DNA from: Macrobrachium rosenbergii
Taxonomy: Eukaryota; Arthropoda; Malacostraca; Decapoda; Palaemonidae
Direction of reading: 5' to 3'
Assembly: GCF_040412425.1 (NCBI RefSeq)
Contig: NC_089756.1
Coordinates: 1,068,998 to 1,132,997 of the forward strand
Length of the DNA stretch: 64,000 bases
The notes under the pieces were generated by a model. It was not told the origin of the DNA and ran no database searches. It saw nothing but the letters and a program-made list of their open reading frames with translations. This document shows, in pieces, positions 39,949-63,240 of this stretch. Numbering within the stretch: the stretch's first letter is position 1; the number at the start of each line of letters is the position of its first letter. The translations under genes and the position numbers were made by a program.

Positions 39949-39951
39949 TAA

Positions 39952-40548: not shown

Positions 40549-40619
40549 CTGACCAGCCTTAAACAGACAGGACATACCATTCTTTGACTAAGGTAAGTCA
40601 GGTTCCCAGAGCTGACATG

Positions 40620-41402
40620 TCACCTGATTTCCCTAGTCCTTTGCAAATATATAGAGAGAGCTCTAACTGGACATAGGTAAGTTTCTTCCCCATCTGGCAT
40701 CAAAGAGGACAGACTAGGGATCACGAAAGAGCAAGGCAGAGGATGAGGCTTAAAATCATTCTTGGCCCTGAAAAGGGGTAGAAAAGAAAGGCTAACAAAC
40801 ACAGAGTCTTCACTTTCAAAATCCTTAAGGGAGGTTGTGCTCAAGGATTCAAATGGAGGCATTCATAAATACTTAAGCACCACATCCAAATTCCAGCCCA
40901 GGAGTTAATTTGGAGATTTAGAAATACATATCAATTTGGAAGGTGTGGATGGCCTCCTTAATATCCATGTTAGATGAAATGTCAAAGCCAACATGCCTCA
41001 ACACAGCAGCTAACATGGATTGATGCCCTTTAATTGCTAGGGCTGAAAAATGTCTGTTGTAGCATAAGTAAAGTAAGAATTTAATGATGTTATTCACAGA
41101 AGTATGGGTGCAGAAGGCCCTCTGGCAGAGCACCAAGCCCTATATACTGCCCACTGTTTTTGATACAGTGACATTAGTTGACTCCCTTCTGGCGTTAAGG
41201 ATAGATTTTCTGCATTCTTTTGAAAAACCTCTTGCTGGTAAGAGACAGCAGAGTCTCTCCAAGCGGTCAGCTGAAGCGTGGGGACGTTTTGGTGAAACCT
41301 CATATCTTCTGGCTGTTTGAGAAGACCTTTCCTTGATGAAAGAAGCGTTGGTCTACTAACAGAGGCAGGGTGTTTGGGAACCATTCTCTCGGTGGCCACC
41401 AA
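40620..41402 (-). pseudogene. DIRS 1 tyrosine recombinase (fragmentary)
   Basis: Minus frames 41402-41094 (SLYQKQWAVYRAWC, the N-terminal SAM-like region), 41136-40918 (NNIIKFLLYLCYNRHFSALA with IKGHQSMLAAVL) and 40862-40620 (LCPVRALSIYLQRTREIR). The catalytic H-x-x-R and Tyr region is not found and may lie beyond the left truncation at about 40600. Confidence 0.72.
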
Positions 41403-41439
41403 AGGGTCACTAAAGTCATGGATGAATTCACAGCTATAC

Positions 41440-44078: not shown

Positions 44079-45290
44079 TTGTTATCTAGACCACCCACAC
44101 ATTTGTCTGGTGGTAGCGGCGATGCGATTGTTTATACAAGACGAGAAGCAGCATTGTCGACAGAGGAAGCAATCAGCATACTTGAAATGCGTCGTGCTGG
44201 TAATAACAAAGATGATAAGATAAACTCCTGCGTACCAGTACGAGCCAAGGGTGGTAACATGTTTGTTTTAGATGTCGATTCGTTGCCAAATAAGCGTGAT
44301 TTACATGTTGAAATTATGTATGGGTAAATGACGGAAGAAGAAAACTTCTTAAAAGAAACCCTAAACTGTACAAGAACTTTTTAAAAATATGGCTTCCCGA
44401 TAAAACACATTCGGCATCTTTCCAAAAGGCAATTTTCTAGTTAACTGATGATTCTAGACATGTAATAATTCATTATACTGGGGATGAAACAATTTATCAA
44501 CCTTTTTCACAAGGAAATTCCAAATAAAAAAAAACAGTGTTTTTCGTAGAATATGTCCGTCCGAGATAGATAAATCAAAAGCTAGTGACATTTCCTCATC
44601 TGCAAATCTGATTGAAAAAGAGTCTAGGAGCGAGGCAGTTTTAACTGGATTGGATTTAGGTGTTAAAACTGCTAGGAATCTGCAACAAGTGAGAAACCAT
44701 TTCCACAAGGCCCGTCTTGAAAATAAGCTTAGCAACGATGACATATACAATTTATGTGCAATTTCTTATGAACTAGATGACTTTCACAAACAAATTTATG
44801 CTTTTCCATCATTAGTACGTATCTCAGGCAAGGATGAGATTTTGACAGAATATAATGATTTATTAGCTTTTGATTCAGGGAGCCCTTTAAAAATGTATTA
44901 CGATAGCCTACAAATTATAAACTTGGGGAATAGCTTGTTAGTGTACTCACCAACGTGTGCTCTTTGGGGGTTCCAGGGTTATTCCTCTGGTGTTTATGTT
45001 GCATGACTGCCCAGATGCAAAATTTCACGGACGCTTATCTGATGTTTTAAAGAATGACATTCCAGATCTAAGCAAAACTTCATAACCAATCATTTGTGAT
45101 GGTGAACCAGGCTATAAACAAGATTTTACCCAATGTTTCAATTGTTCATGGAATCACATAAAACAAGTTGTTAAAATTTGGTTAACTAAACTTAAGACAA
45201 CACAGGACGACATTTCAGTTTATACAAATCACTTAAATTCATTATTAAAATGTCATAACGAATGCGAATTTGACTAAAAACTTGAACAAC
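44079..45290 (+). pseudogene. MULE-like transposase relic
   Basis: Plus-strand frames, read in order, give RRAGNNKDDKINSCVPVRAK, LPDKTHSASFQKAIF, VIIHYTGDETIYQPF, the long frame 44650-45006 (DIYNLCAISYELDDFHKQIY, YYDSLQIINLGN) and, after a shift, LMHDCPDAKFHGRLSDVLKN and PIICDGEPGYKQDFTQCFNC with SWNHIKQVVKIWLTK. The last part matches the D-G/E-x-G-x...C-x-x-H pattern of MULE-type DDE transposases, and the YDS-x-x-LGN part matches the first catalytic Asp block. Family assignment is from memory of motifs. The copy has stops and frameshifts and ends at the DIRS 2 boundary. Confidence 0.5.
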
Positions 45291-45309
45291 TGGAAGTAAC
45301 ATGGTCGGA

Positions 45310-46090
45310 CGGAGGGGTTCTACAACCACCTCTTCGTGGTTCCCAAGTCATCGGGAGGATGGAGGCCTGTCCTGGACGACAGTGCCCTGAACCTCTTTGT
45401 TCAAACAACGAAGTTCAAAATGGAGACGAGCCAGTCGGTATTGTCAACCATCCACCAGGGTGACTGGATGGTCACGATCGACATGCAAGATGCGTGCTTC
45501 CACGTTCCAGTTCACCCAGATTACAGGAAGTATTTGAGATTCGTGTTCCAGGACAGAGTCTTCCAGTTTCGGGCACTGCTTCAGCCTCTCCACGCCACCT
45601 CAGTTTTTACTTGAGTACTCGCTCCCCTAGCAAAATGGTTACATCTCATGGGGATAAACATCTCTCTGTACCTCGACGACTGCCTCCTACGCTCCCCCTC
45701 AAGATCTCAGTGCACAGAGGATCTTCAAAAAACACTTCAACTTGCTCAAGATCTAGGACTTTAAATAAATTTCAAGAAGTCTCAGCTAGTCCCGATTCAG
45801 TCTATTCCATATTTGGGGATAGTGATAGACTCTTTGAGTTTTTGGGCTTTTCTGTCTCAACAAAGGATCCTAAATTGTCTCAGAAAAGTTCAAGACTTCA
45901 GAGCTCGCCCCTCCTGCTCAGTCAATGCATGGATGAGTCTCCTGAGAACCCTCTCTTCCATAGAGCATTTGTTCCATTGGGCAGGCTACATACAAGGGTA
46001 TTGCAATTTTACCTCAAGGCCAATTGGCAAAGGAAGTCATTCCCAGATTCATTTATCTTCAACAGTACTCCTGAGATCTAAGAGGACCCT
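45310..46090 (+). pseudogene. DIRS 2 reverse transcriptase
   Basis: Starts with NHLFVVPKSSGGWRPVLDDS, ALNLFVQTTKFKMETSQSVL and GDWMVTIDMQDACFHVPVHP (palm Asp kept in TIDMQDA). YRKYLRFVFQDRVFQFRALL follows, then a damaged LPFGL-type block and the catalytic LYLDDCLLRS (YLDD at about 45668-45680) in another frame. VPIQSIPYLGIVIDSLSF and the thumb follow. One stop and at least two frame changes are visible. Confidence 0.85.
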
Positions 46091-46770
46091 CGGTGGTGGC
46101 TGGTGAAGGGCAGATTTACGACAGGAAAGTCTCTGGCTCCAATGTACCCCAACCAAACGTTATACTCGGACGCTTTGGATGGGTTGGGGAGCTCTTCTCA
46201 ATGGTATGGATGTTTCAGGAACATGGTCTCCAACTGAAAGAACCCTCCACATCAATGTAAAAAAGTTAAAGGCTATTCATCTTGCACTTTAGCATTTTGC
46301 AACACAGACTTCAACAAGATATTGGCGGTCCATTCAGACAGCAAGACCGCCCTGGCTCACATCAAGAACTAAGGAGGGACTCATTCTTTTTTGCTCTACA
46401 AAGTGACCAAGGATTTTCTCCTGTGGGCACTAAGCAACGAGACCCAAGTGGTGACCTGCTTCATTCAGGGAAGCCATGGGGAAAGCCGTCGATAGACCTG
46501 TTCGCAATGTCAAGGAACCATCTTCTTCCTCTGTATTGTTCCCCAGCTCCAGATCAGCAGGCATGGGCGGATGCCATGCTGCCGGACTGGTCAGACCTCC
46601 ACACACACACACAGCATGACCCTAGTCGCTCCCTTTTGGCCTCACAAGGAGTGGTTCCCAGACCTCCTAAGTCTACTGACGGACTTCCCAAGGCTACTTC
46701 CTCAGAGGAGAAATCTTCTCAAACAGTCGCACTTTCACAGATTCCATCTAGGGTTATCCACTCTCGCTCT
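46091..46770 (+). pseudogene. DIRS 2 RNase H and linker domain
   Basis: Contains the RNase H-like phrases LYSDALDGLGSSSQWYG, KLKAIHLAL and TDF-x-AVHSDSKTALAHIKN in shifting frames. Then comes the DIRS-specific region SGKPWGKPSIDLFAMSRNHL, YCSPAPDQQAWADAMLPDWS and MTLVAPFWPHKEWFPDLLSL. A tract of CA repeats (46599-46612) interrupts the reading. Confidence 0.75.
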
Positions 46771-47712
46771 GACAGGCTTCAGACTCAAGGAGCTTGTCAG
46801 AGTGAAAGGATTTTCAAGGAAGGCTGCAGAGGTTATTGCTAAGCGTAGGCGACGATCTTCTGCTGCAGTCTACCAAGCCAAATGGACAGTTTTTCGGAAG
46901 TGGTGCCGTGAGTGAAATATCTCCTCTTCTCAGACATCTGTAACTCAGACTGCAGATTTTCAGTTACATCTTAGAGCCCCAAAAGGACTTAAAACATCTA
47001 CCATCAAGAGCAATGTTGAGTTCTGTATTCAAACATAAATGGCTGTCAGGACCGCCATTTGAACTTTTGGAGTCATCCTCACTTAGGAATCTAATGAAGA
47101 AGACCTTATTCTTGATGGCATTAGCTGCAGCTAGAAGAGCTAGTGAGCTACATGCCATCAATAAAAAGGGTAGGCTTTTCTCAAGGTAATGCTATATTCT
47201 CACTGATTTTGGGTTTCTTGGCCAAGAATGAGTGCCTGACTAACCCTTGGCCTCGTTTCTTTTCAATCAGGAGCCTGTCCGAAGTACTCAGTCCATCTGA
47301 TCAAGAGAAAGTCCTCTGTCCTGTAAGAGCCTTAAGAGTATACCAAGAAAGAACCAAAAGCCTCAGAGGTTCCTCCTCAAATCTTTGGTGTTCCATGAAA
47401 GACCCCAGCAGTCCATTGTCCAAGAATGCATTAATGTTCTTTTTAAGATCTGTGATTTCGGAAGCACATTCAGGGGTTCAGGACGATTTACTACCGTGAT
47501 GTAAAGTAAAACCTCATGAAATAAGAGCGGTGGCTACATCCTTGGCATTCAGACATAATCTGTCTCTCTCTTCAATCTTGCAGTCAACATATTGGAGGTG
47601 CAAGTCAGTGTTTACCACATTCTACCTACAGGATATAGAAACGGTATACGAAAAATGCAGTACTTTAGGTCCGTTCTTCACAGCTGGCATGGTATTGAGG
47701 GATGAAGGATAG
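46771..47712 (+). pseudogene. DIRS 2 tyrosine recombinase
   Basis: Shows the N-terminal SAM-like part (KGFSRKAAEVIAKRRRRSSA, YQAKWTVFRKWC). The box A region MKKTLFLMALAAARRASELH (about 47092-47155) holds the conserved Arg. VLCPVRALRVYQERTKSLRG follows, then KPHEIRAVATSLAFRHNLSL (about 47509-47570) with the H-x-x-R motif, and TYWRCKSVFTTFYLQDIETV with the candidate nucleophile Tyr. All catalytic landmarks of a tyrosine recombinase are visible, but the frame changes at least twice (near 47040 and 47500). In DIRS elements it integrates a circular DNA intermediate without target duplication. Confidence 0.85.
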
Positions 47713-47715
47713 GAG

Positions 47716-48504
47716 GAACGCCTTCTTTTCCTCTATCCACTCTCCTTGAATAAGGATAGTTGCACTTCTTGGGAAGTCTGGTGAGCACTGAGTTGTGAGT
47801 GTCACCAATCCGTGATTTTATGGTTTTGATTAAATTTTGTGGTGGTGTAGTTTATTTTTTATCTGGTCTTTGTTTTCTGTTGTGCTGCGCCCAGGGCAAG
47901 GGCATATACACATATTATTTATGTGTCCTTTTGAATTGTAAGCTTTGGCAACCCGCAATAACCTCCTACGTTGCAAAGCACCCACTCAAGTAGAGGTGAC
48001 CCTTGGCTCTACCGCCATGCCGCTACAGGTCGAGAGGAGCTTCAACCAGAGGCAGTACCCATCTGCCGTTGCTCCTTCACCAGGTAAGGCACTTCAAAAT
48101 GCTAGCTAACTTTATATTCCAAATTTTTTTCCATATCAGAGTTTTTCTGGGGTAGTATATGTCCTTTCATCTCACCCCCAATCAATGTGGGATTCAGCTA
48201 TGTAATTATTTGGTAAGTTACTTATATAAAAATGGCATTTTTTATAATAAAATAAAGTTTTATATATACTTAGCAAATAATTACAGGATCAGAGCTCTCC
48301 CTCCTAAACAAATTGAGCTCTTTACCTACGCTATACCTATTCTTCCCTCAAAGTGGGCAGGGCAGTATACCTACACCCAAAACAAAAGAGTGCTCCCGCT
48401 AATTTTGAATTTTGAGCTGCTGCGTAAAGTAGAAACTATAGCCATATAATTAATTGGTAAGTATATATAATAATTTATTTTATTATGAAAATGTCATATT
48501 TGTT
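47716..48504. other. 3' region of DIRS 2
   Basis: Non-coding. It contains TA-rich inverted repeats (see next entry) and may carry the terminal repeats of DIRS 2, but I could not match them to a 5' end because that end is truncated. Confidence 0.4.
48202..48284. repeat. inverted repeat, arms about 28-30 bases
   Basis: GTAATTATTTGGTAAGTTAC at 48202 pairs with the reverse complement of 48257-48284 (GTAATTATTTGCTAAGTATA...). A related AATTAATTGGTAAGTATATA recurs at about 48447. It could be a terminus of DIRS 2 or of a small foldback element. Confidence 0.7.
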
Positions 48505-50388
48505 CTTACACGATATACAAACCATCGATCCTTCACATTAGGAAGGCTCATTGGTTGGAGGGAGAAATCTGAGTGAGTCTCTTTGAACTGAATGGAGTTC
48601 TGCACACCTGGGTTGCTACTCCTGGTCGAAAGAGCAAGAAGGAGTACCGTGCCTGACCAACTGATCGGAGTATAGGAACTATGAGATCAAATGCCAGACA
48701 TCTGGACCTTTTTGAATGAGTGAGGAATCCAACTCATACGAAAACAGACTGGGAAGAATATAAAGAGTCAGTTTCCTAACCCGAAGGTCGGGAAGAGTCA
48801 ACGAGAGACCCACTGCCGCCTCGAAAGGAGGCAGTCCCTAGACGTCCAAGGGCATCAAGGGGAAAGAAGCAGCCTTCCTCTCCTTTGGCAGACGGAGGTC
48901 TGTCTGGTTCCTGGGACCCCCTTGAACCTCGGGAGAGGAAGGGAAGAGGCAGCAGAAGGTGAAATCAAAGATAAGTAGAAGACGGCAGCTACTTCCACAG
49001 GGCGATTTCCTTCACCTTCACTCTGACATCTTCTACAGGATGGTGGACACAAAACATCGTAACCTCCAGGCTAGCTAGGCAGGAACACAACGGAAGCAGC
49101 CCAGGACATGACCACCAGGAGAAGCAGCAGGCACGATCAGGACAGCCAATGCAGGAGCTATGGAAGCAGTTCAGAAGGCATGAGCTACAGCAATGGCCAG
49201 GAACGTCACTTCCACAGGGCGACTTCCTTCACCTTCACTCCAACTGCTTCTACAGGATGGTGGACATGAAACATCGTAACACATCAGAAGCAGCCCAAGA
49301 TACGACCACCAGGAAAAGCAGCAGGCACGATCAGGACAGCCAATGCAGGAGCTACGGAAGTGGTTCAGAAGGCAGGAGCTACAGCAGTGGCCAGGAACGT
49401 CACATGAAAGTAACCAGCAGCGACTGGAATGATCAGGACAGCTGCGGCAGGAGACCAGGAAGAGTCACCCAGAGACTGTTGTCGAGTTAACAAGAGCATA
49501 ACATAGGAAACAGCAGGAGCAGATGGACCACAGATATGCCAGAGGCAGTGCCACAGCATACACAAATGCCAGCAATGATAGTGATCGATTCACATCGGCG
49601 GGAACAGAGTTGGAATGATCCCGAAGTAGAGTTATGCAATTCCAACCAGGTACTGTGGTTAATCCTGAAGCAACACTGAATAAACGTCGGTACTCCTTCA
49701 TACAAGATATCCCCTGAGATATCCAGCCAACTACTGCTGTGCCTGAGATGCTCACTGTCAACTTGAAAGAAATAGCAAAGATGATTAGTAGGGACTCCTC
49801 TAGCTACGAGGGGAACTGCCCTACGCAACGAGAGGAAGCCCCTTAGAAGAGGCTGCCTGACTGCCCGCAGCCCCTGCACCTCGCAGTCTTTGCCCAACAA
49901 GCGAGCGAAGAGGGCGAAGGAGAGAGATCTCTACCAAAGGAGAGATAAGGAGGAACCTACAAGGAGAGAGAAAGAGGGGCGGGGGGAAGGCCACCAACTC
50001 TCTATAACAGAGGCGGCGAAAAAAACACTCAGCACAAAGTAGAAAGCAAGTAGTCATGCCCTTGTACACGGAGAGTGGGAACCCAAGAAGGGAAGCGAGC
50101 GCTTACGCCCCAATCAATGTAGGGAAGCAAAGATATTATGTCCCAATCTAATATCTCCAAACGTACAGAGGAACGCCTTCAGTATCTAAATAAAAGACTA
50201 CAGGAAGAGAAGCATTACCACTAGGTTATGCCCCTCTAAATACGCCCTTGGCCATCAAACCCAAGACACAGACACAGGCGAATGACGGCTTATGCAAGGC
50301 TATCACAAATCGTGGGTTTGTATTAATAAATATCAAACATGCAATATATACACACAAATACAGAAAAATCCCACTGGGATACTATCAC
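48505..50388 (+). repeat. short, internally deleted copy of the large repeat unit
   Basis: 48517-48780 matches 50690-50960 (from ACACGATATACAAACC through the CTGCACACCTGGG phrase). 48840-49800 matches 55520-56660, including the tandem repeats. The two matches are adjacent here but 4.5 kb apart in the larger unit, so this copy lacks the segment corresponding to about 50.96-55.5 kb. It is in the same orientation as the left arm of the large inverted repeat. Confidence 0.78.
48985..49450. repeat. tandem repeat, about 217-bp units (left set)
   Basis: CTACTTCCACAGGGCGATTT at about 48990 recurs at about 49205. Each is followed by CTTCTACAGGATGGTGGACA, GACCACCAGGA and AGCAGCAGGCACGATCAGGA. A partial third unit ends near 49450. 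Confidence 0.85.
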
Positions 50389-50674
50389 AATTTTTGGAAG
50401 TAAATTGTATTTTTTCTAACTATGCAAACCTGAGGTCCTTTGCATTAGGAATTACTTTCAGTGTAGGCTGGAAACGGCCGTTAAACACTTGAGCAAGGTG
50501 GTTAGGCAGTAACTAACACCAGGTAGGCAGGAATACTCACCTGCCCAGATGTAAATATTCCAGTTTGCCTTTCGGTCCAGGTTCAGATTGAGGAGTGGCA
50601 TGAGGTGGGCATAATATGTAATGTGAAGGACCTCAGGTTTTTATAGTTAGGAAAAATACAGTTTACTTTCAAAA
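50389..50674. mobile_element. foldback (MITE-like) element, left copy
   Basis: Both ends carry GGAAGTAAATTGTATTTTTT-CTAACTAT-like sequence in inverted orientation (TTTTTATAGTTAGGAAAAAT and ACTTTCAAAA at the right end), each followed inward by CCTGAGGTCCTT and TAGGAATTACTTT or ATATGTAATG. No coding. Equivalent to 60329-60615 in inverted orientation. Confidence 0.75.
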
Positions 50675-53479
50675 ACTGTGATTTGTTCCGACACGATATA
50701 CAAACCGTCGGTCCTTTACATTAGGAAGACTCACTGGTTGGAGGGAGGAATCTGAGTGAGTCTCCTGAACTGACTGGAGTTCTGCACACCTGGGCTACTC
50801 CTCCTGGTCGAAAGAGTGAGGAGAAGTACCTGAGCCTCTGACATATTGATCGGAGTGTAGGAACTGCAAGATCAAATGTCAGATACTGGACCTTTTCGCA
50901 CGAGTGAGGAAACGTGACTCATGCGAAATAGGTTGGAAGAATCTTAGAGTCGGAGGCAGTAAGGAAAAGCTGAGATAGGGTTTCTCTTATTGCCAGACTC
51001 TCCTTCCTCCCTTTGTTAGAGAAAGGAGCAGAATTGCTTCTATGATTCTAGGAGAAAAATAGAACAGGTGCTTGATGTGTAGTCTTACCGCATCAGTACC
51101 AGGTTCAGCATGTGTTGGTTCAAGTCCTATTCTCATCCCGAAGGAGGAGAAGTAGAAGGATGGGGAAGGAGGAGGAAGAGATGCCAGTCACTCTTGGTAT
51201 CCTTCTCACTTCCAGAACCAGCACCTTAGGCGAGATGCTAGTAGTCCTCTTGAAAGAGCCGGGTAAGAAAACACAATTTGTTAAGCAGCCACCACAGGGC
51301 CAAGGAAAAAAGATTCCGAGGGCCTGTACGCAAGTCCATAGGAAGACAAGAGTGTGGTCTATGAGACCACGTCTTGCTTCCAGCCCGACAGAATCTTCCA
51401 GAATGCGAGGGATGGACCAAGCCATCGGCTTCGTGAGCTCTTGGGTGGAAGGTACTGGTATCGACGTCGTCAGCTGCTGAGTACCTCCTTCGATCACTTC
51501 ACAAAGTCATGAGGAAGATGTGTCCTTAGGCACTTCTTCCTTGGGAGAGAGAGTACTAGCAAAAATGTCAACGACATCCAGGTTAGGAGTGTCGAGCCTT
51601 TTCAGAAAGTACCACAGCTCCCTAAAGGACAAAGTAACGAATGACCTGGATCATCGATACAAAGTCCAAGGAGGAGGGAAACAAGGACAACTCGAACTCA
51701 TCTTCTATGCCAAGGCCGGAGCAAGGTGAGAGATGGTCCTACAAGGGCAGATCTCTATCCAACAACTCTCATAAGGACACGTGCAGCATGGGATAGGAAC
51801 CCTAAACAAGAGTCCCATGCCACCCAGGGAGCAGTTCCCTGGGACAGCAAGACCGAAGAAGCTTCTCATCCGTAGCTAAATCTTGACTGAGGAGAAGGCT
51901 ACTTCAGATAGAAGACTAGGTCGCAAGGGCCTACGTTCTTCACAAATGAAAGGGAAAGAAGCAGCCCTCGGCAGAGAAGACAAGGAAGTCCAGACTTGAA
52001 GAGAGACTCTGACTCGAGAAGGAGTACAGCAACGACACCCACCAGCGAAGACGGCTCCATTCCCTGTGAGTGTTGCATAGGAATTCAAGAGATATCCAGC
52101 TATAGTCACTGCCCCTCAGCAAGAAAGCCTATGCTTGCAAGGGAAGCTGGAAGGACTCCCAGTCCCAAACACACCGGGATGTACTGCCCAAAGAAACGCT
52201 TCTTGTGTAGCTGCTACAGGAGGTTGGGTCAAGCAGAACTCTTCTCGATGCCTCGGCTATCAGGACGGGCGAGAGGGGAAGTCTTCCAGCATTTGTCTGT
52301 AACTCGGGGTGAGCAATGCGTCAGAATCCCTAGCAAAACAGACAAGTACAGAGGGGAAAAAAAGTAGATATCAAGTTTCCCAGAAAGACAGCATGCCCAG
52401 CCGTAGCGGCCTCTGGGTCCAGTATGAAGGAGCAAGAAAAAACTACCGACTTGTGCAGGGAGGCAACAGAAAAACGGTAGGGATTTCTCAGTCAAGCCAT
52501 CTCTTCATGAATCTTTGAGTCAACAGCACGTTCCGTCCTGATCACTCAAACCCGAGGCTAAGCTCGCCTGCCAATACATCCCCACCAGGGATGCATCTGG
52601 TTAATTGAGATGTCGAGTGCGCTATAGAACACTCAAGTACCTGCAAATGTCAACAGATGGAACAGGAGAAAAAACGATTCCCTCTTGTTTGTTGACAAAT
52701 GCCACTACTGTGGTTTGTTGTTCAATGAACCACTGAGTGTTGCAAAACTCATCCTGAAATCTTGGAAGGCCAGAAGGCTGCCTTGAGCCCAGGATGATGA
52801 TGAGAAGGTACTAATCATCTCGGTCCCACACCTTCATGGCAAAGTCTTACAGGTGTGTGCCTATTCCTCGATTGGTGAATCTGTAAGAAGACACACGATG
52901 TGAGGGGAATATGCAAGCATATTCAAAGTTCCTTCAATCAAGAATTAGCCTAACTCCTTCCTCATACTCTGAAGAGGAAAGAAGGATGGAGGAATTGCAG
53001 AAGACTTCCATTCTCCGCCATGGGGAAGCTTCTGGAAGATGACATGATACCAAGACAATTAGCTCTAGCTGGGCTGGCATTTCCTGAATCAGGAGCATGG
53101 GAGAGGAAGCGGGAAGGAAGTTTGATAAGAAGAATTGCCGAGACCTAAGGGAAATAGATACTTCTCCTGAAGGAAACCATTCCCAGGTCTCGGCAATGTC
53201 GCTGCCAGCTCCAGAGACTTGATAAGTATCATTTCATCCAGGAATCTGCAGTAGGAGAACTTCTTTCCAGTCAATACTTCTTTCTCTCTTCCCTTCTTCC
53301 CTCCTCCCTCATGGGCAAGAGGGTGGAAAGAGACGCAATTATGCACACTCTCCTTGAAGGGTAGGAGAGGCTATGTTCTGCAATCTTCTATCAAAGCCTG
53401 GGACTTCTTAGAAGTTGAGGGGGGGCTGGCTTGAACTCGAGGTCGAGCCGAGATGACTAAGACCCCAAGGTCTTGGCCA

Positions 53480-53994
53480 CTGTCCAAAGGACATGGCAGT
53501 GCCCTGGTATCTGGCAAATCTCTGCAAGAGAGGGCAGAACCTAAGGGTTCCCAAGGGTCAAGCCAACTCGGGACTTATGAAACCGGAGATCCAAATTGAG
53601 ACAAAGTCCTTCTTAGCACCAGAATTGTCCACGGAACTGCAGTCGGCCAGACCCTTCGAGGCAAGAAGAATTCGTATTCTGTCAAGGCAGGGGAGAAGCC
53701 TGGTGTCTCGACCTGAATGAACTCATTTTCCGAAGAAAAGAGTTCATCTGGTCGAGAACGCTCTTGGAAGCAAGGACCGCGGTGGCCCCTGACTCTCTCG
53801 GCCCCTCGGGAACTGCAAGGGTTGCAAGTGATGAAGATTATTCATTGGGAGAGTCGCGGTCCTGTCCCAGGGATCCTTGCGCTGACGAATCGGCGCGAAG
53901 TTCCCCAAAAAATGAGGGCGATCGCAACTTGAAAGACCCTCACTACTTCCGAAGCATGAAACTCCTGTGCCTCTTCCCTTGGAGGGAGCCTTGA
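53480..53994 (+). CDS. unrecognised open frames within the left arm (mirror at 57479-56860 minus)
   Basis: Frames starting MAVPWYLANL (53493) and MEARTAVAPDSL (53764) have counterparts in the right arm on the minus strand. Both arms share GLMKPEI, APELSTELQSARPFEARRIR and LSRQGRSL. Conservation between arms may only reflect their recent common origin. The DEDYSLGESRSCPRDP-type acidic stretch looks protein-like, but I cannot assign a family. A Gag-like protein is one possibility. Treat as hypothetical. Confidence 0.2.
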
Positions 53995-54410
53995 CAGATC
54001 CCATGAAACCCTCCTCGGCTATCTGGTTATACTACAAAACAATCGGGGGACCGACACCCAAAGCACACCAGTAAGCCGAGCTCCAAAGAGCTCTCTCTGT
54101 CCATCTCGCGCCTCTCGGAACAACCAAGAGGAAAAGAGAACAGGTGAGGAGAAACAGTACCCCTACCTGTCCTGCCAGTAAAGCCAGCAGGAGAGGTGGA
54201 CTGTGAGTGATAATCAACCGAAGAAGATTACTGCTACACGAGGGAAGAAGAGAGCTTGTGCCATGGCAAAGCGCTTTCCTGGGAAGAGAAAAAAAGTTCA
54301 CTTGAACAGAGCTGAGAACCTGATTCGGAAAAAACCAAGTGGGGCTGAGCTGAGCCAATCGCACGAATGCAATTCAGACTGAAAGGTATGCGGTGGACGG
54401 GAGGCAGGCT

Positions 54411-54545
54411 GGGCAAGCCGAGCCGAGCTGGGCCAGTCTTGCAAGTGCGACCAAGGACTGGGCAGGGCGAGCAAGCCGAGCAAGCTGAGCCGAGCCAGTC
54501 TCGTAAGCGTGACCGGGGGCCGAGCCGAGCCGAGCCGATCAAGCG
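54411..54545. repeat. imperfect repeat of GAGCCGAGC words
   Basis: AAGCCGAGCCGAGCTGGGCC is echoed by AAGCTGAGCCGAGCCAGTCT and by GCCGAGCCGAGCCGAGCCGA, with an overall spacing of about 60 bases between related blocks. Confidence 0.7.
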
Positions 54546-54751
54546 AACACAATCGGAACTGGACAGGGCGGAACTCGTCTGCCGTGAACTATTGCTAGTT
54601 TCCCGAACTCTAAACTCCGAGGCCGAGGCCCCTCGAGAAGAAGGTTCAAAGTGGAACTCTGTGTCTGCTATCCTGCATGCTCGAACCCTAAGGTTCAAGA
54701 CACAAGAATGAAACCCAGCCGAGCAACCGAAGCAGCTGGCGGGCAGTATCG

Positions 54752-54820
54752 AGACACCTGGCGTCTCGGCACCCAGACACCTGGTGTCTCGGCACCCAGA
54801 CACCTTGGTGTCTCGGCACT
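54752..54820. repeat. three copies of a 23-24-bp repeat with a palindromic core
   Basis: AGACACCTGGTGTCTCGGCA plus CCC is repeated three times. Each unit carries the near-palindrome GACACC-TGG-TGTC. Single echoes occur at about 55189 and 55262. Confidence 0.85.
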
Positions 54821-55654
54821 TTCTCTCGTCCTGTGCCTCTCATCAGGAAAGCGCTCGTGATTCATAGAATTCGAGCTACCCACGAGACTCCCAAAAATTG
54901 GGAGTGGCTGCTTTCAGTTCCTAAGAGATCAAAAGAGCCAGGCACAGAACCAGTCTTAGATGCAGACTTCCAAGACTGGCAATGAGGGCGTGCCTCGAGA
55001 GGTCGCGCTCTTGCGGCCCCTGAAATGCCAGACCCCACAGGAGAATGCGAATCGGTTCCCGCCCAAGGGCAGGAAGAGCCAACGAAAAAAACTTGTCTCC
55101 CGGAAGAGAATCAGTCCCTTAGAAGTCCCACAGGACTCCCAACGGGAATCTCTTCCGTGCTTCTTCTGGTGTTTGAGCCGACAGGATCGAGACACCAGGC
55201 TGGGAACCCAACCGAGCACTGGCAAGCACTCAGAGTGCTTGTGGTGATGGCAGGAAGGGCTGAGACACCTGGGTGCCTGGCCCTTTCTCTCGCACTGCTC
55301 CCGACCTGGGCTGAGGAAATATTCTCCAGACCAGATCGGGATACTCGATATTCCATAGAATCTCGAGCACTTAGAGCGGCTCGCGAGCAAGCCCCCGGAG
55401 CAGCCCCCGTCTTAGAAGCGGAACCTCTAGGACTGGGAACGGGATCGCAGACCAAGTTCGGTGCTCCCGCGGCTCCCGAAACACAAAACCCAGGGCTATG
55501 CGAATCAGTTTCCTAACCCGAAGGGAATCAAGGGGAAGAAGCAGCCCTCCTCTCCTTCTGCCGACGGAGGTATATCCGATTCCCAAGACCCCCTTGGACC
55601 TTGGGAGAGGAAGGGAGACGCAGCAGAAGACAAAATCAGAGATAAGATGAAGAA

Positions 55655-56330
55655 GACGGTGGCTACTTCCACAGGGTGGCTTCCTTCACCTCTACTCTGA
55701 CATCTACAGGATAGTGGACAAGAAACATGGTAACCTCCAGGGCAGTCAAGCAGGAACACAACGGACGCAGCCCACAACACCACCACCAGGAGAAGCAGCA
55801 GGCATGATCAGGACAGCTGATTCAGGAGCTAAGACAGCGGTTCGGAAGGCAGGAGCTACTGAAACGACCAGGAAAGTCACTTTCCACAGGGCAACTTCCT
55901 TCATTTTCACACCAACATCTTCTACAGGATCGCGGACATCGTAACCTCCAGGGCAGCTGGCAGCAACACAATGGAAGCGGCCCCAGGCACGACTGCCAGG
56001 AGACACGGCCAGCGTTATTAGGACAGCCAGTGCAGGAGCTACAGCAGCGGTTCGGAAGGTAGGAGCTACTGCAACGGCCAGGAACATCACTTCCACAAGG
56101 CGACTTCCTTCACCTTTACGCCAACATCTACAGGATGGTGGACATCGTAACCTCGAGGGCAGCTGGCAGAAACACAACGGAAGCGGCCCCGGGCATGACC
56201 ACCAGGAGAAGCAGCAGGCATGATCAGGACAGCCAATGCAGGGGCTACGGCAGTGGTTCGGAAGGCAGGAGCTACTGTAACGGCCAGGAAAGTCACATGA
56301 AAGTCACCAGCAGCGATAGGAATGATCAGG
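55655..56330. repeat. tandem repeat, 205-216-bp units (right set)
   Basis: The landmark ACTTCCACAGGG recurs at about 55664, 55880 and 56088, and its shortened form CACATGAAAGTCACC follows at about 56293. Internal landmarks are GACATCGTAACCTC, AGCAGCAGGCATGATCAGGA and CGGTTCGGAAGG. On the minus strand the array reads as Ala/Val/Pro-rich repeats, most likely incidental. Confidence 0.88.
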
Positions 56331-57602
56331 ACAGCTGCGGCAGGAGAACAGGAAGAGTCACCCAGAGACTGTCGTCAAGTTAACAGGAGCGTAACACAGG
56401 GAACAGCAGGAGCTAATGGACCACAGATATGCCAGAGGCAGTGCCACAGCATACATAAAGGCCAGCAATGACAGCGATCGATCCACATTGGCGGGAACAG
56501 AGTCGGAACGATCCCGACATGGAATTAGTCATCCAGCTAGGTATTGTGTTCGATCCCGAAGCAACACTAATGAACGTCGGGACTCCTTCATGCGAGATAT
56601 CCCCTGAGATATCCAGCCAATTACTGCTGTGTCTGCAATGCTCACTGTCGACCTGAAAGAGAAAGCAAAGATGATTAGAGAGGGAAATCTCTACCGCAGG
56701 AGAGAAAGGAAGAACCTATGGGGAGAGAAAAGGATGGAGGGGAGGCCACCAACAGCGCCGTGGAAGTGTAACTTACAGACGACGCCCGCAACCTCCCACC
56801 AGCCCTGCAACTCTCTAAGCACAGAAAACAACACTCTTTGGAGTTTGGCTTCCTGGTGTGCTTTGGGTGTCGGTCCCCCGATTGTCTCGTTGTACAACCA
56901 GGTATCTGAGGAGGGTTTCATGGGATCTGTCAAGGTTCCCTCCAAAGGCAGAGGCACAGGAGTTTCACACTTCGGAAGCAGTGAGGGTCTTTCAAGTTGC
57001 GATCGCCCTCGTTTTTCGGAGAACTTCGCGCCGATTCGTCAGCGCGAGGATCCCTGGCACAGGACCACGACTCCCCCAATGAATAATCTTCATCACTCGC
57101 AACCCTTGCAGTTCCCGAGGAGCCGAGAGTGTCGGGAACCGCCGCTGTCCTTGCTTCCGAGAGCGTTCTCGACCAGATGAACTCTTTTCTTCAGAGGAGT
57201 TCAGTCAGGTCGAGACAGCAAGCTTCTTCCTTGCCTTGACAGAATACGAATTCTTCTTGCCTCGAAGGGTCTGGCCGACTGAAGTTCTGTGGACAATTCT
57301 GGTGCTAAGAAGAAGGACTTTGTCCCAATTCGGATTTCCGGTTTCATAAGTCCCGAGTTGGCTCGACCCTTAGGAAAGAACTTTACTTGGTTCTGCCTTT
57401 CTCTTGCATAGATTTCCCAGACATCTCGGCAATCAAGGTTCGTACCAGGGCACTGCCTTGTCCTTTGGAAAGTGGCCAAGACCTTGGGGTCTTAGTCATC
57501 TCAACTCAACCTCAAGCCATCCCCCCCGCCCCCTCAACTCCTAAGAAGTCCAGGCTTCGATAGAAGATCGCGGAACATAGCCTCTCCTACCCTTCTAGGA
57601 AA

Positions 57603-57998
57603 GTGCGCATAACTGCGTCTCTTTCCACCCTCTTTCCCATAGGGGAGGAGGGAAGACAGAAAGAAGTATTGACCGGGAAGAAGTTCTCCTACTGCAGATT
57701 CCTGGATGAAATGATACTTATCGAGTCTCTGGAGCTAGTAGCGACATTGCCAAGACCTGGGAATGGATTCCTTCAGGAAAAGTATCTATTTCTCTTAGGT
57801 CTCGGCAATTCTTTTCATCTCGCTTCCTCTCCCGTGCTCCCGATTCAGGAAATGCCAGCCAAGCTAGAGCTAATTGTCTTGGTATCCTGTCATCTTCCAG
57901 AAGCTTCCCCATGGCGGAGAATGGAAGTCTGCTTCCATTCCTCCATCCTTCTTTCCTCTTCGAAGTATGAGGAAGGAGTTAGGCTAATGCTTGATTGA
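57603..57998 (+). CDS. unrecognised 131-residue frame in the right arm (mirror in left arm)
   Basis: Contains KFSYCRFLDEMILIESLELV and ATLPRPGNGFLQEKYLFLLG. The left arm encodes a near-identical stretch on the minus strand (53346-53089). The opposite strand is also open here (57912-57718), so strand and coding status are uncertain. No family recognised. Confidence 0.18.
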   Translation: MRITASLSTLFPIGEEGRQKEVLTGKKFSYCRFLDEMILIESLELVATLPRPGNGFLQEKYLFLLGLGNSFHLASSPVLPIQEMPAKLELIVLVSCHLPEASPWRRMEVCFHSSILLSSSKYEEGVRLMLD

Positions 57999-60328
57999 AG
58001 GAACCTACGAATATGCTTGCATATTCCCCTCACATCGTGTGTCTACTTACGAATTCACTGATTGAGGAATAGGGACACACCTGTAAGACTTTGCCTTGAA
58101 GGTGTGGGACCGAGACGATTAGTACCTTCTCATCACCATCCTGGGCTCAAGGCAGCCTTCTGGCCTTCCAAGATTTCAGGATGAGTTTTGCAACACTCAG
58201 TGGTTCATTGAACAACAAACCACAGTAGTGGCACTTGTCGACAAACAAGAGGGAATTGTTTTTTCCTCCTGTTCCATCTGTCCACATTTGCAGGTACTCG
58301 AGTGTTCTATAGTGCACTCAACATCTCAATTAGTCAGATGTATCCCCGGTGGGGATGTATTGGCAGGCGAGCTCGGCCTCGGGTTTGAGTGATCGGTACG
58401 GAATGTGCTGCTCACTCGAAGATTCATGAAGAGATTGCTCGACTGAGAAATCCCTACCGTCTTTCTGTTGCCTCCCTACACAAGTCGGTAGTTTTTTCTC
58501 GCTCCTTCATACCAGACCCAGGGACCACTACGGCGAGGCATGCTGTCTTTCTGGAAAACTTGATATCTACTTTTTTCCCCTCTGTATTTGTCTGTTTCGC
58601 TAGGGGTTCTAAAGCATTGCTCACCCTAAGTTACAGACAAATGTCAGAAGACTTCGCCTCTCACCTGACCTGATAGCTGAGGCATCGAGATGAGTTCTGC
58701 TTGACCCAACCTCCTGTAGCAGCTACACAAGAAGCAGTTCTTCGGGCAGTACATCCCGGTGTGTTTGGGACTGGGAGACCTCCATCTTCCCTTGCAAGCA
58801 TAGGCTTTCTTGCCGAGCAGCAGCGGCTATAGCTGGATATCTCTTGAAATCCTCTGCAACACTCACAGGGACTGGAGACGTCTTCACTGGTGGGTGTCGT
58901 TGCGGAACTCCTTCTCGGGTCAGAGTCACTCTTCAAGTCTGGACTTCCTTGTCTTCTCTGCCGAGGGTTGCTTCTTTCCCTTTCATTTATGAAGAACGTA
59001 GGCCCTTGCGACCTAGTCTTCTATCTGAATTAGCCTTCTCCTCATTCAAGATTTAGCTATGGATGAGAAGCTTCTTCGGTCTTGCTGTCCCAGGGAACTG
59101 TTCCCTGGGTGGCATGTGATTCTCGTTTAGGGTTCCTGTCCCATGCTGCATGCACCCTTACAAGAGTCGTTGGATAGAGATGTGCCCTCGTAGGACCATC
59201 TCCCTCCTTGGCATAGAAGATGGAATATTAGGTGAAGGGGTCAATACCTCGACTCCTCGGATATTGTAGGTGGACTCCGAATCCTTCGGTATCTATTGTC
59301 GGGTTCGAGTTGTCCTTCTTCTCCTCCTCCTTGGACTTTGTATTGATGATCCAGATCATTCATTACTTTGTCCTTTTGGCAGCTGTGGTACTTTCCGAAA
59401 AGGCTCGACACTCCTAACCTGGATGTCGTCGACATTTTCGCTAGTACTTTCTCTCCCAAGGAAGAAGTACCTAAGGACGCATCTTCCTCCTGACTTTGTG
59501 AAGCGATCGAAGGAGGTACTCGGCAGCTGACGACGACGACTATACTGGTACCTTCCACCCAAGAGCTCACGAAGCCGATGGCTTGGTCCATTCCTCGCAT
59601 TCCAGAAGTTTCTGTCGGGCTGGAAGCAAGACGTGGTCTCACAGACCACACTCTTGTCTTCCTATGGTCTTGCGTGCATGGCCCTTGGAACCTTTTTTCC
59701 TTGGCCCTGTGGTGGCTGCTCAAAAAATTGTGTTTTCTTACCCGGCTCCTTCAAGAGGATGAGTAGCATCTTGCCTAAGGTGTTAGTTCTGGAAGTGAGA
59801 AGGATACCGAGAGTGACTGGCCTCTCTTCCTCCTCCTTCCCCGTCCTTCTAATTCTCCTCCTTCGGGATGAGAATAGGACTCGAACCAACACGTGCTGGA
59901 CCTGGTGCTGATGTGGTAAGACTACACACTGAGCACCCTTTCTATTTTTCTCCTAGACTCATAGAAGCAATTCCGCTCCTTCCTCTAGCAAGGGGAGGAA
60001 GGAGAGTCTGGCAATAAGGGAAACCCTATCTCAGCTTTTCCTTACTGCCTCCGACTCTAAGATTCTTCCAGCCTATTTCGTATAAGTCACATTTCCTCAC
60101 TCATGCGAAAAGGTCCAGTATCTGACATTTGATCTTGCAGTTCCTACACTCCGATCAATATGTCAGAGGCTCGGGTATTCCTCCTCGCTCTTTCGACCAG
60201 GAGGAGTAGCCCAGGTGTGCAGAACTCCAGTCAGTTCAGGAGACTCACTCAGATTCCTCCCTCCAACCAGTGAGTCTTCTTAATGTAAAGGACCGACGGT
60301 TTGTATATCGTGTTGGAACAAATCACAG

Positions 60329-60615
60329 TTTTTGAAAGTAAATTGTATTTTTCCTAACTATACAAACCTGAGGTCCTTTACATTACATATTATGCCCACC
60401 TCAGGCCACCCCTCAATCTGAACCTGGACCGAAAGGCAAACTGGAATGTTTGCATCCGGGTAGGCGGGTATTCCCGCCTACCTGGCAGTAGTTACTGCCT
60501 AACCACCTTGCTCAAAAGTTTAACGGCCATTTCTAGGCTACGCTGAAAGTAATTCCTAATATACAGGACCTCAGGTTTGTATAGTTAGGAAAAATAGAAT
60601 TTACTTTCAAAAATT
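60329..60615. mobile_element. foldback (MITE-like) element, right copy
   Basis: TTTTGAAAGTAAATTGTATT then TTTCCTAACTATACAAACCT at the left is mirrored by AGGTTTGTATAGTTAGGAAA then AATAGAATTTACTTTCAAAA at the right; the arms are about 55 bases. It sits exactly between the inverted-repeat arm and the LINE to its right. Confidence 0.8.
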
Positions 60616-60833
60616 TTGATTTTATTCCCATAAGTTGACAGTCGCTGTTGGTCATACTTTGGACACTCACATAACACGTGTCTGAAGGTATCATCATCCT
60701 GCACTCTGAGCACTCGTGAGCCAGGCCACGTGGGCTGCTCATTAAGTGTCCATGTGTCACACAAGTATAGCCTATTCTGAGACGTGTTAGAATTACTTGT
60801 GCGTATCTCTCTCTCTGATATGATTAACTCCAT
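60616..60833 (-). pseudogene. LINE C-terminal Cys/His segment
   Basis: Minus frame with QNRLYLCDTWTLNEQPTWPG and VQDDDTFRHVLCECPKYDQQ, the short C-terminal segment with an H-x-x-x-x-C pattern that ends many Jockey-type proteins. The peptide then runs into the foldback element. That is probably where the LINE was cut by insertion of the repeat unit to its left. Confidence 0.65.
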
Positions 60834-61171
60834 TTTTTAACATTAGGTTTTATTTGTTTCAACTTATTACTTTCAGGTTCTTCATCCCATATATATTGCC
60901 ATTTATTTATGATACCCATTTTTACGTGTGCTACATAATCAGTAATAGGGATATTCACATTTGATCTTGTCATGTGGGTTGCTTCTTTGGCTGCTTTGTC
61001 TGCATCTTCATTCCCTTTGATCCCTACATGGGCAGGGATCCAACATATTTCTACATTTTTTCCATTACTATATAAGTTATGGAGATATAATTTAATTTGT
61101 TGTACTATATTGTTTTTTGACTTATAACTCTGAATAGCTTCTACAGCGCTTCTCGAGTCACTAAAAATCAC
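60824..61171 (-). pseudogene. LINE RNase H domain
   Basis: The frame starts MIFSDSRSAVEAIQSYKSKN, with the second-Asp block of RNase H (F-S-D-S-x-S-A). It continues VEICWIPAHVGIKGNEDADK with AAKEAT, the conserved W-x-P-x-H-x-x-x-x-GNE-x-A-D motif holding the last catalytic residues. The N-terminal D-G-S block is in the frame-shifted sequence right of 61180. It would remove LINE RNA from the hybrid. Confidence 0.88.
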
Positions 61172-61417
61172 AAAATTATTGAATGATGTTTCTTTAATTA
61201 TTTTTATAGATGATGCAATTTTCCCACTTCGTGTTCTAATTTAGATCCATCTGTATATATTGCGTAATGTGGACCTTTTCGGCTTATATGCTCTATTGTA
61301 TGATGTCTATGGTGTTCTGGTGTATATGAGTTACTTTTTGGATAAATACTTGAGGTGTGTGCAAATTCTCATTTTATTCATTGTCCAGGGAGGAGGTGAT
61401 TTTACTATTAAAGGCAC

Positions 61418-61879
61418 TTACATATTTACATTTAGCGACTCAAAGAATCTTCTAGCTCTAATTATGAAAGGTGGTGGATGGTTATTTATAAATACATCTT
61501 TTAATTCAAATAATTTTTTGGTTGGAGAATCACTCGTCTGAATTCTTAGAGCACTTTTCATTGTTATTAGCACTCTATGGAGAGGCAGAGGCAGTTTACC
61601 ACATTCAACTTGCAAAGATGATTTGGGTGATGATCTAAAGGCTCCTGAGCATATTCTAAGGCCCTCATTGTGAACAGGGTCTAACATTTTCAGCGCTGCA
61701 TTCGATGCTGAGCCATATACTTCGCTTCCATGATCAATGCTGGACAGAACTGTTGCTTTATATTGTACAGTAAGGGCATGTCTATCGGCTCCCCGAGTAG
61801 TGTTCGGTAGTTTTCTAATTAGATTTAATGCTCTTTTACATTTAGATTTTACGTATGTTATGTGGGCTTCCCAGTTCAA
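61418..61879 (-). pseudogene. LINE RT thumb and connection region
   Basis: Open frame with MNWEAHITYVKSKCKRALNL, ATVLSSIDHGSEVYGSASNA and DPVHNEGLRICSGAFRSSPK, the usual phrases after the RT core of Jockey/I-type elements (W-x-x-HI, L-x-Y-x-x-x-VYG, HN-x-GLR-x-x-x-GAFRTSP). A short gap of frame-shifted sequence separates it from the RT core. Confidence 0.85.
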
Positions 61880-61959
61880 GTGAGAGTCGAGAGATTTTCA
61901 AGTGTATTTCTTCACCTTTTTTTCCACTTCTTATTTTTATAAAACATGATTGCTTGAGT

Positions 61960-63240
61960 TTAATCTATGGAAAATTTAAAGCCTACAGATGAGGCCCATT
62001 CATCTATTTTTACTATGCATTTGTTAATGATTCGTTCTGCATGTTTTATTCGAGATGCTGAATAATATATGGCAAAATCATCCATATACAGGTTACTTTT
62101 AATACCAATAGGAAGATTATTACTGATATCATTAATTGCTAAAGTAAACAGTGTGCCACTAAGGACACTTCCCTGTGGAACACCATTTTCAAATGGAAAT
62201 GTTCTAGACAGAACATTATCATTTCTCACCTGAAAACTGCTATTTGTCAAAAAGTTTTGTATAAACCTAGGTAAATGTCCACAGATGTTGTTGTTTTGCA
62301 AAGTTTTTAATATAGCATACCTCCAAGTAGTATCGTATGCTTTTTCAATGTCAAAAAAGACAGCTACAGTAATTTGTTTTCGTTCAAAACCTCTATGTAT
62401 ATGGTCTTCTAAGTTACAGAGATAATCTAATGTAGATCTGTTACACTGTGACCCAAACTGAGTGGGAGTCAAAATTTTATTTTCTCGAATGTGCCATGGT
62501 AGTCGAGCACTTACCATTTTCTCAAACAGTTTGCATAAGCAGCTTCTTAAAGAAATTGGTCTGTAATTATTTACATTACTGGGATCCTTTCCAGGTTTGG
62601 GGATAGGAATTATTGTAGCTTTATGCCATTCATCTGGAAATAAATTTCGAAGCCATAAATGACTATAAACTCTAATAAGTATGACTTTGCCAAAGGTGCT
62701 AAGTGGCAGATCATCTCAAAACAAACATTGTCACCTCCAGGAGCAGATTTATTGCTGTTCAAGAGAGCGTATTTCAACTTTGACATATTAAATTTTTTAT
62801 TATAATACATATCTTCTCTTGTTTCAAAATTTATTGCTATTAATTCTATTTTATTTTTCTTTGTGCAGAAGTGTTCGTGTAAATTCTTATCACTACTTAC
62901 ATTTGCTAAATTTTCTCCCATTATATTACTTATTTCTTTTGGATCAAGTGTTCTTTTCCCATCTTTTAATATGGCATGTCTAGGTGGTTTGACATGGGTA
63001 CCATTTATTTTCCTGAATTTTTCCCATATTTTTTGTATGGGAGTATTATTAGAGAGATCTGATACGTATTTCCTCCACGAAATGACTCTTCCTGGAATTA
63101 CTTCTTTTTTTAAATTTTGCAGATATTTTGTTGTATAGAGGTTTTAATGTATCAATTTCTAGTAATAATATAATAATTTTTTGTAAAGTTCCTTCTAATA
63201 TCAGTAACATTTTATTTATTTTACTGAACTTTCTATTCAA
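61960..63240 (-). pseudogene. LINE reverse transcriptase
   Basis: The minus frame 62921-62610 covers the region before RT with LKYALLNSNKSAPGGDNVCF (the K-S-A-P-G-x-D motif) and is then interrupted. The frame 62517-61960 has TPTQFGSQCNRSTLDYLCNL, AVFFDIEKAYDTTWRYAIL (palm Asp present), NGVPQGSVLSGTLFTLAIND and the catalytic box NLYMDDFAIYY with both Asp. The core is well preserved. The upstream frame 63240-63049 carries the linker after the endonuclease. Confidence 0.88.

What the first reader, a model, noticed from the sequence alone, without database searches (positions are those of the whole stretch)
50389..60615. 10-kb unit made of two 3.7-kb inverted arms around a repeat-rich 2.7-kb centre
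The arms run outer edge to inner edge in inverted orientation with only scattered differences (15 in about 200 bases sampled). Each outer edge is a foldback element. The centre is GC-richer and tandemly repetitive. No transposase, RT, integrase or recombinase is recognisable, although the arms have open frames on both strands. A partial, same-orientation copy at 48505-50388 shows that the unit is mobile or recurrently duplicated rather than a one-off palindrome. It could be a giant foldback or non-autonomous transposon, or an inverted duplication with a gene family in it. It is the best candidate for something undescribed.
Basis: partly seen in the sequence, partly recalled or inferred. Interest (0 to 1): 0.75.

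Follow-up and report, generated by a model that had tools for sequence, protein, structure and literature searches.

The report
Non-coding DIRS retroelements, inverted by chance
The 10-kb "palindrome" in this crustacean-like genome is best read as two separate copies of one large, gene-dead mobile element of the DIRS type lying back to back, and the family itself is a little-described kind of passenger that appears to move with the enzymes of its coding relatives.

Summary
In detail: two 3.7-kb arms in inverted orientation (90.6% identical), a foldback at each outer edge, a repeat-rich centre and a partial direct copy. The unit is not a giant transposon. The own-genome search (3.18 Gb) shows the arm to be part of a dispersed element ("X", about 7.3 kb) with DIRS1-like anatomy: inverted termini, internal complementary regions (ICRs) matching both termini, NTT/TTT ends, no target duplication seen. 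Each edge foldback is the ICR plus right terminus. The window holds three X copies: X1 (48498-50381, minus, internally deleted), X2 (50384-56836, minus, inserted in X1) and X3 (56834-60625, plus, inserted in a LINE). X2 and X3 differ by 8.2%, like other family pairs (mean 9.8%). Their junction was found once among 40 scored candidates, and is best read as a deletion fusing two insertions. X encodes nothing: each frame carries at least 59 stops shared by half or more of 15 copies, the RT core is missing, and four recombinase frameshifts are shared by 10-11 of 12 copies. Coding DIRS elements with matching ends exist in the same genome. So X is a non-autonomous, pseudogenised DIRS family, probably moved in trans. 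Trans mobility and copy number are inferred, not shown.

The parts
48498..50381 (-). X1: internally deleted X copy (element coordinates 7030-6783 and 2109-242); its 3' side ends at the right end of a coding DIRS remnant, at X's circular-junction trinucleotide
   Evidence: BLAST against full-length copies; start of homology and neighbouring foldback
50384..56836 (-). X2: X copy from its right terminus to element coordinate about 590, 5' end missing; inserted into X1
   Evidence: the right flank is X1 at element position 242
56834..60625 (+). X3: 3' part of an X copy (element coordinates about 3530-7329), inserted into a LINE ORF
   Evidence: LINE reading frame up to ...QQRLSTYGNK
56834..56836 (.). 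X2/X3 junction with 3-bp overlap; found only here among 40 scored genome candidates
50619..50723 (-). Internal complementary regions (ICRs) of X2, self-palindromic
   Evidence: 75% self-inverted, E 6e-7
60281..60385 (+). Internal complementary regions (ICRs) of X3, self-palindromic
   Evidence: 73% self-inverted
50384..50447 (-). Right terminus of X2 (complementary to the right ICR)
60557..60625 (+). Right terminus of X3 (complementary to the right ICR)
50434..50575 (-). Conserved ITR of X2; the inverted partner of the left ITR seen in full copies
60429..60582 (+). Conserved ITR of X3
55665..56296 (-). 206-bp tandem repeats, a normal internal part of X (element 1245-1881 in copy L009); about two copies in X1 at 48991-49403
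44488..48497 (+). DIRS-B: coding DIRS1-like remnant (RT, tyrosine recombinase) with its own ICR at 48201-48285 and right end, the same geometry but different terminal sequence
   Evidence: the recombinase is named from its motif (recalled), RT by a sub-threshold RVT_1 match
60626..63143 (-). Non-LTR (LINE) ORF2 remnant in which X3 sits

Best explanation
The locus is a nest of non-autonomous DIRS1-like retroelements. The element X is a DIRS1-like element of about 7.3 kb whose genes were already dead in the founder of the family, but which kept the cis signals (left and right ITR, two ICRs, NTT/TTT ends). Shown: this anatomy, the dispersal, the lack of coding capacity, the homology to coding DIRS elements with matching ends, and that X2 and X3 are no closer than other copies. 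Inferred: X RNA is copied and circularised by a coding relative's reverse transcriptase, the ICRs template the circle junction, and the relative's tyrosine recombinase integrates the circle at an NTT without target duplication, sometimes into other DIRS or X copies. Here X2 went into X1, X3 into a LINE in the opposite orientation, and one deletion with 3 bp of microhomology removed both 5' ends and left the apparent palindrome (inferred).
For: Dispersed copies: 184 matches on many contigs, 40 of 6432 candidates scored. Inverted ITR at the far end in 13 of 20 loci fetched. In these 13, left start found in 13 and right end in 12 (one disrupted), 6.4-8.5 kb apart; left trinucleotide NTT in 11 of 12 printed rows, right TTT in 8 of 12; no target duplication seen by eye. 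lTer-lICR 39-58 bp at 84-94% in 13 of 13; rTer-rICR 53-69 bp at 91-99% in 12 of 13; lITR-rITR 89-167 bp at 83-94% in 13 of 13. Same geometry in the coding DIRS-B. Coding relative D55: RVT_1 just above cut-off, similarity to DIRS-B in RH and YR, X-type ITR (85%) and 3' end (74%), 7.4 kb. Collinear with X copies over 5175 of 7377 bases. L009-D55 identity 83-92% in the last 400 alignment columns against 58-77% upstream. X2-X3 divergence 8.24%, mean of all pairs 9.84%, support for the pair 0.164. Junction found once. Shared stops; shared YR lesions. Nested insertions: X2 in X1, X in X at about position 208 in D25 and X in a DIRS ICR in D48.
Against: No transcript, circle or new insertion was observed, so mobility in trans is inferred. 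D55 and D71 are themselves interrupted; an intact partner was not found, because the genome search was mostly unavailable. D55's YR frame matches no Pfam family. The conserved-ends contrast rests on one X copy and D55; against D71 it is weaker (70-84% in the last 400 columns, 53-74% upstream), and D55-D71 shows no such contrast. The coding control D55-D48 shows no clear third-position excess (7/13/15). X2's single nearest copy is X3 (8.24%, next 8.30%), although X3 has six nearer copies. The loci were chosen among the best matches to X2. The codon-phase test has little power on a star-like family. Only 40 of 2500 junction candidates were scored. Self-insertion is not shown to be preferred: 2 of 20 right flanks (one at a disrupted end) in the first set and 0 of 10 in the second abut X.
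Confidence: 0.89

Rival explanations
1. The 10-kb unit is itself a giant foldback transposon with 3.7-kb terminal inverted repeats that moves as one piece.
For: Both outer ends are right termini like those of the dispersed copies; an ITR-bounded composite could in principle circularise.
Against: Of 41 listed matches to the junction query, only the window spans it; 39 (one of them the window's own left arm) hold only the X3 side from the junction on, and one short match covers positions 152-203 (40 of 2500 candidates scored). Copies elsewhere are single elements with ITRs of about 150 bp. The left flank is X1 and the right flank a LINE.
Confidence: 0.02
2. The palindrome is an inverted duplication of one element in place (fold-back synthesis or breakage-fusion).
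For: Two arms in exact register, 3-bp overlap at the junction; X3 is X2's nearest copy by a small margin.
Against: X2 and X3 differ about as much as other family members, X3 has six nearer copies, and support for the pair is 0.164. A duplication as old as the family burst cannot be excluded by divergence alone.
Confidence: 0.07
3. X is a host gene family or long non-coding RNA locus, not a mobile element.
For: Non-coding, GC-richer than its surroundings.
Against: Dispersed on many contigs with sharp ends in unrelated flanks, ITR, ICR and NTT ends; homology to coding DIRS.
Confidence: 0.01
4. X copies are merely dead relics of an autonomous family that was coding while it multiplied.
For: X is collinear with coding DIRS over 70% of its length; differences between D55's YR and X show a third-position excess in 4 of 5 copies.
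Against: At least 59 stops per frame are shared by half or more of 15 copies; four frameshifting YR indels are shared by 10-11 of 12 copies, judged against D55's open frame; in L009 a net 770 bp or so are missing over the RT core. The lesions predate the burst.
Confidence: 0.05

Closest known systems
DIRS1-like retrotransposons (PMC3266345; passages seen)
   Same: ITRs; two ICRs near the 3' end overlapping on a 3-bp circular junction; trinucleotide ends of the NTT/TNT kind (published TTT...TGT/AAA and TTT...TAT/AAA); ICR sizes in the published range; a short core shared by ITRs and ICRs; no target duplication
   Different: No RT/RNase H/methyltransferase or tyrosine-recombinase frames; about 7.3 kb against 3974-6283 bp for the 28 elements they detailed; their finder needs three coding domains and leaves relics out, so it would miss X
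DIRS elements of caridean shrimps (PMC5532655, PMC10454600; passages seen)
   Same: DIRS reported as abundant (2.87% of the Exopalaemon carinicauda genome; 8.84% for Macrobrachium nipponense in that paper's repeat accounts, with a divergence peak near 10%); X may be part of such totals
   Different: The passages give totals only, with no element anatomy and no non-coding family
DIRS-1 of Dictyostelium (PMC5633606; passages seen)
   Same: Circular intermediates, and reported insertion into DIRS-1 copies; some X copies are nested in X or DIRS
   Different: Autonomous, coding; a preference for self-insertion was not shown here
Non-autonomous TOC1-type YR elements of Chlamydomonas (recalled, nothing read)
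   Same: Non-coding elements thought to depend on YR retroelements in trans
   Different: Recalled to have split direct repeats (PAT-like ends), not ITR plus ICR
Foldback elements (FB, Galileo, Tetris; search listing only)
   Same: Long inverted arms and internal tandem repeats at first sight
   Different: X has ITRs of about 150 bp; the long arms here are two elements

Membership tests
DIRS1-like lineage (as a non-autonomous derivative) | Inverted terminal repeats | tested here: met
   13 of the 13 loci with a far-end ITR (of 20 fetched): 89-167 bp at 83-94%
DIRS1-like lineage (as a non-autonomous derivative) | Internal complementary regions near the 3' end, matching the left and right termini | tested here: met
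   lTer-lICR in 13 of 13, rTer-rICR at 53 bp or more in 12 of 13; self-palindrome at 60281-60385
DIRS1-like lineage (as a non-autonomous derivative) | Trinucleotide ends matching the circular junction, no target-site duplication | tested here: met
   Left NTT in 11 of 12 printed rows, right TTT in 8 of 12, no direct repeats in the flanks by eye, no chance control; nested copy in D25 with both halves of the target present
DIRS1-like lineage (as a non-autonomous derivative) | Homology to coding DIRS1-like elements | tested here: met
   Collinear over 5175 of 7377 bases with D55; D55 has RVT_1 at 29.8 bits against a cut-off of 29.6 and similarity to the recombinase region of DIRS-B; its YR frame matches no Pfam family
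Autonomous DIRS1-like retrotransposon | Open frames for gag, RT-RH-MT and tyrosine recombinase | tested here: not met
   Longest stretch free of shared stops 235 codons in any of six frames; shared frameshifts; RT core missing in L009
Autonomous DIRS1-like retrotransposon | Circular DNA intermediate and RNA copying | not testable with these tools
   Needs DNA or RNA from the animal
Foldback transposon with 3.7-kb arms as TIRs | The composite recurs with common ends and target duplications | tested here: not met
   Junction found once among 40 scored candidates of 2500; flanks are X1 and a LINE

The most novel reading that the evidence does not exclude
X is a long-lived non-coding lineage living as a parasite of coding DIRS elements: its body drifted to 58-77% identity with the coding relative D55 while the ICR-to-end block stayed at 83-92%, and it multiplied at full length (about 7 kb) to what look like high numbers (thousands of unscored candidates). 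It would be the DIRS counterpart of a SINE or LARD, showing that DIRS enzymes act in trans on long non-coding templates chosen by ITR and ICR alone.
Probability: 0.5. Interest if true: 0.5.

Novelty: new variant of a known kind. Interest (0 to 1): 0.35.

Why it matters
A published DIRS finder rests on coding domains (PMC3266345), so non-coding families such as X would be missed and counted as unclassified repeats or foldbacks. X comes with coding relatives of matching ends in the same genome, which makes the cis requirements of DIRS replication (how much of ITR and ICR is needed, and whether the enzymes act in trans) directly testable. It also warns that long palindromes in such genomes can be chance neighbours of one repeat family.

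Tried and rejected
Rejected: giant foldback or long-TIR transposon; in-place inverted duplication; gene family; chance. No hidden Pfam domain in the 10 frames tested; no Rfam family or tRNA in the window (0 matches).

Led nowhere: an X pattern and the LINE RT protein in viral contigs (0 loci each); a mistaken pattern in the window (0 matches); a protein search with a right-arm frame (35 candidates, none at E 10 or below); X motifs in papers (0 papers); phrases for non-autonomous DIRS (0 papers); TOC1 searches (no useful paper). The foldback was first taken for an inserted MITE; the match with the geometry of DIRS-B and the far-end ITR of full copies overturned that. That X1 homology runs on towards the arm edge was not significant with X1 and X2 alone; full copies settled the extents. 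A genome-wide search with the DIRS RT protein and a count by pattern did not complete.
Full report
1. What is there. The two arms (50376-54090 and 60628-56834) are 90.6% identical in inverted orientation, with 349 differences in 3729 compared sites and 16 internal gaps (the aligned stretches are slightly wider than the arms). Ten base shuffles gave at most 46 bits. Differences between the arms fall evenly on codon positions in all six frames, and no Pfam family was found in 10 of 10 frames tested.

2. The surroundings. The window is animal DNA. A coding DIRS-type remnant (RT and tyrosine recombinase; here DIRS-B) lies at 44.4-48.5 kb, another DIRS remnant on the minus strand at 40.6-42.7 kb, and a LINE ORF2 on the minus strand at 60.6-63.1 kb. 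Named LINE relatives include Macrobrachium rosenbergii (75% over 66% of the query), Procambarus and Petrolisthes, but also spiders, and the best matches are unnamed. The host is probably a decapod; no call names it.

3. The key. DIRS-B ends in a self-palindrome (48201-48285), a spacer of about 160 bases and an end (48447-48501) complementary to half of the palindrome. The foldback at each edge of the 10-kb unit has the same design: a palindrome at 60281-60385 (and 50619-50723), about 170 bases, and an end complementary to half of it. That is the ICR plus right terminus of DIRS1-like elements as described in PMC3266345 (passages).

4. Test in the genome. The arm query gave 184 matches across contigs, with 40 of 6432 candidates scored. 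Twenty loci were fetched. In 13 of 20 the far end carries the inverted ITR; there the two ends lie 6.4-8.5 kb apart in the 12 where both were found. Right ends are sharp in unrelated flanks in 18 of 19 loci examined (L017 is disrupted; L020 was left out because its right end is interrupted; L023's flank is another X), and X2 and X3 end alike. The left terminus matches the left ICR in 13 of 13, and the right terminus matches the right ICR over 53 bp or more in 12 of 13. No target duplication was seen by eye; the left trinucleotide is NTT in 11 of 12 printed rows and the right one TTT in 8 of 12, without a chance control. In D25 one X sits inside another at about element position 208, with both halves of the target present.

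5. The window in element terms. X1 (48498-50381, minus) holds element 7030-6783 and 2109-242; its 3' side stops at the circular-junction trinucleotide, against the right end of DIRS-B. X2 (50384-56836, minus) runs from the right terminus to about position 590, and its right end sits in X1 at position 242. X3 (56834-60625, plus) runs from about 3530 to its right terminus, which cuts the LINE frame just after ...QQRLSTYGNK; four of five relatives viewed run on for 30 residues. X2 and X3 meet in a 3-bp overlap.

6. Not a recent duplication. Over 3667 columns X2 and X3 differ at 8.24%. The mean over all pairs of 21 sequences is 9.84% (range 7.3-13.5%). X3 has six nearer copies; X2's nearest is X3 by a hair (8.24 against 8.30%). 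Support for X2 plus X3 is 0.164 (19 of 20 loci used, L024 dropped because its start is doubled; two loci cover only part of the arm). A 400-base query across the junction gave 41 matches: the window spans it; 39 hold only the X3 side (one of them the window's own left arm); one short match covers positions 152-203 (40 of 2500 candidates scored). One deletion from within X2 to within X3 would remove the left ITR of X2, the rest of X1, the LINE tail and the 5' half of X3, and explains everything seen (inference).

7. X is non-coding and was so in its founder. In an alignment of 15 copies, 59-74 stops per frame are shared by at least half of the copies (2.4-3.0 per 100 codons; composition alone would give 4.0-4.6 in one sequence, and the half-of-copies rule lowers the count), and the longest stretch free of them is 235 codons. 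Codon-phase variation is absent (2 of 46 windows at p<0.05, 0 at p<0.01), though a star-like family gives that test little power.

8. Where X comes from. Four stretches next to X copies hold coding DIRS or further X elements. D55 (contig C55) is a 7.4-kb DIRS with X-type left ITR (85%), a 414-residue frame at the place of gag, RT (RVT_1 29.8 bits, cut-off 29.6), and similarity to the RNase H and recombinase pieces of DIRS-B, though its recombinase frame matches no Pfam family. X copies are collinear with it over 5175 of 7377 bases, mostly at 58-69% identity. In L009 about 250 bases stand in place of 1015 of D55 that include the RT match. In the recombinase, four frameshifting indels are shared by 10-11 of 12 aligned copies (12 of 14 sequences gave an alignment of 150 bases or more; judged against D55's open frame). 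D55-X differences there show a third-position excess in four of five copies, the fifth aligning over only 34 bases; the coding pair D55-D48 itself shows no clear excess (7/13/15), so this is weak support for a coding ancestor. Identity of L009 to D55 is 83-92% in the last 400 columns (ICR to end) but 58-77% upstream; against D71 the contrast is weaker (70-84 and 53-74%), and D55-D71 shows none; L009 and L010 are 87-97% alike throughout. The cis signals were kept; the genes were not.

9. Self-insertion. X2 sits in X1, X in X in D25, and X in the ICR of a coding DIRS in D48. But among right flanks only 2 of 20 in the first set (one at the disrupted end of L017) and 0 of 10 in the second abut X, so a preference is not shown.

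10. Mechanism. Shown: anatomy, dispersal, death of the genes before the burst, matching ends in coding relatives, cases of nested insertion. Inferred: copying and circularisation of X by a relative's enzymes through ITR and ICR, and integration by its tyrosine recombinase at an NTT.

11. Novelty. DIRS is reported as widespread in decapods (PMC2685390, title and passages; PMC10454600 and PMC5532655, passages). No paper in the held library has "non-autonomous DIRS", "nonautonomous DIRS", "non-autonomous YR", "non-autonomous tyrosine recombinase" or "DIRS non-autonomous", and "non-autonomous" does not occur in PMC3266345 or PMC2685390. That is weak evidence of absence: repeat databases were not searched, and TOC1 of Chlamydomonas (recalled) is a non-coding YR-type element. 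I rate X a new variant of a known kind, and the palindrome itself ordinary.

Noticed in passing
window 44488-48497: Coding DIRS1-like remnant on the plus strand with a clear ICR (48201-48285) and right end; it stops within a few bases of X1's circular-junction trinucleotide, as if it had integrated there.
   Followed up: partly
window 40599-42710: A second DIRS-type remnant on the minus strand (RT, RNase H and recombinase pieces).
   Followed up: no
window 38776-40530: A 1.75-kb foldback with arms of about 450 bp (80%), next to a weak DDE_Tnp_4 frame (just below cut-off) at 38042-38512.
   Followed up: no
window 19630-19776, 22899-23286, 24989-25137: Minisatellites of one 62-63-bp unit type at three places within 5.5 kb.
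   Followed up: no
D48 stretch (L032 plus L026), near 10939: An X copy starts exactly in the ICR of a coding DIRS with an X-type 3' part (69%); together with DIRS-B against X1 this suggests that ICRs may be integration targets.
   Followed up: partly
D25 stretch (L024 plus L031), D71 stretch, window 50381: Right ends lie at X positions of about 208, 194 and 242: a possible second insertion hot spot just inside the left ITR (three cases only).
   Followed up: partly
G000:C29:21998308-21998748: The junction query hit both strands here (positions 152-203 minus and 201-400 plus), perhaps another inverted X pair.
   Followed up: no
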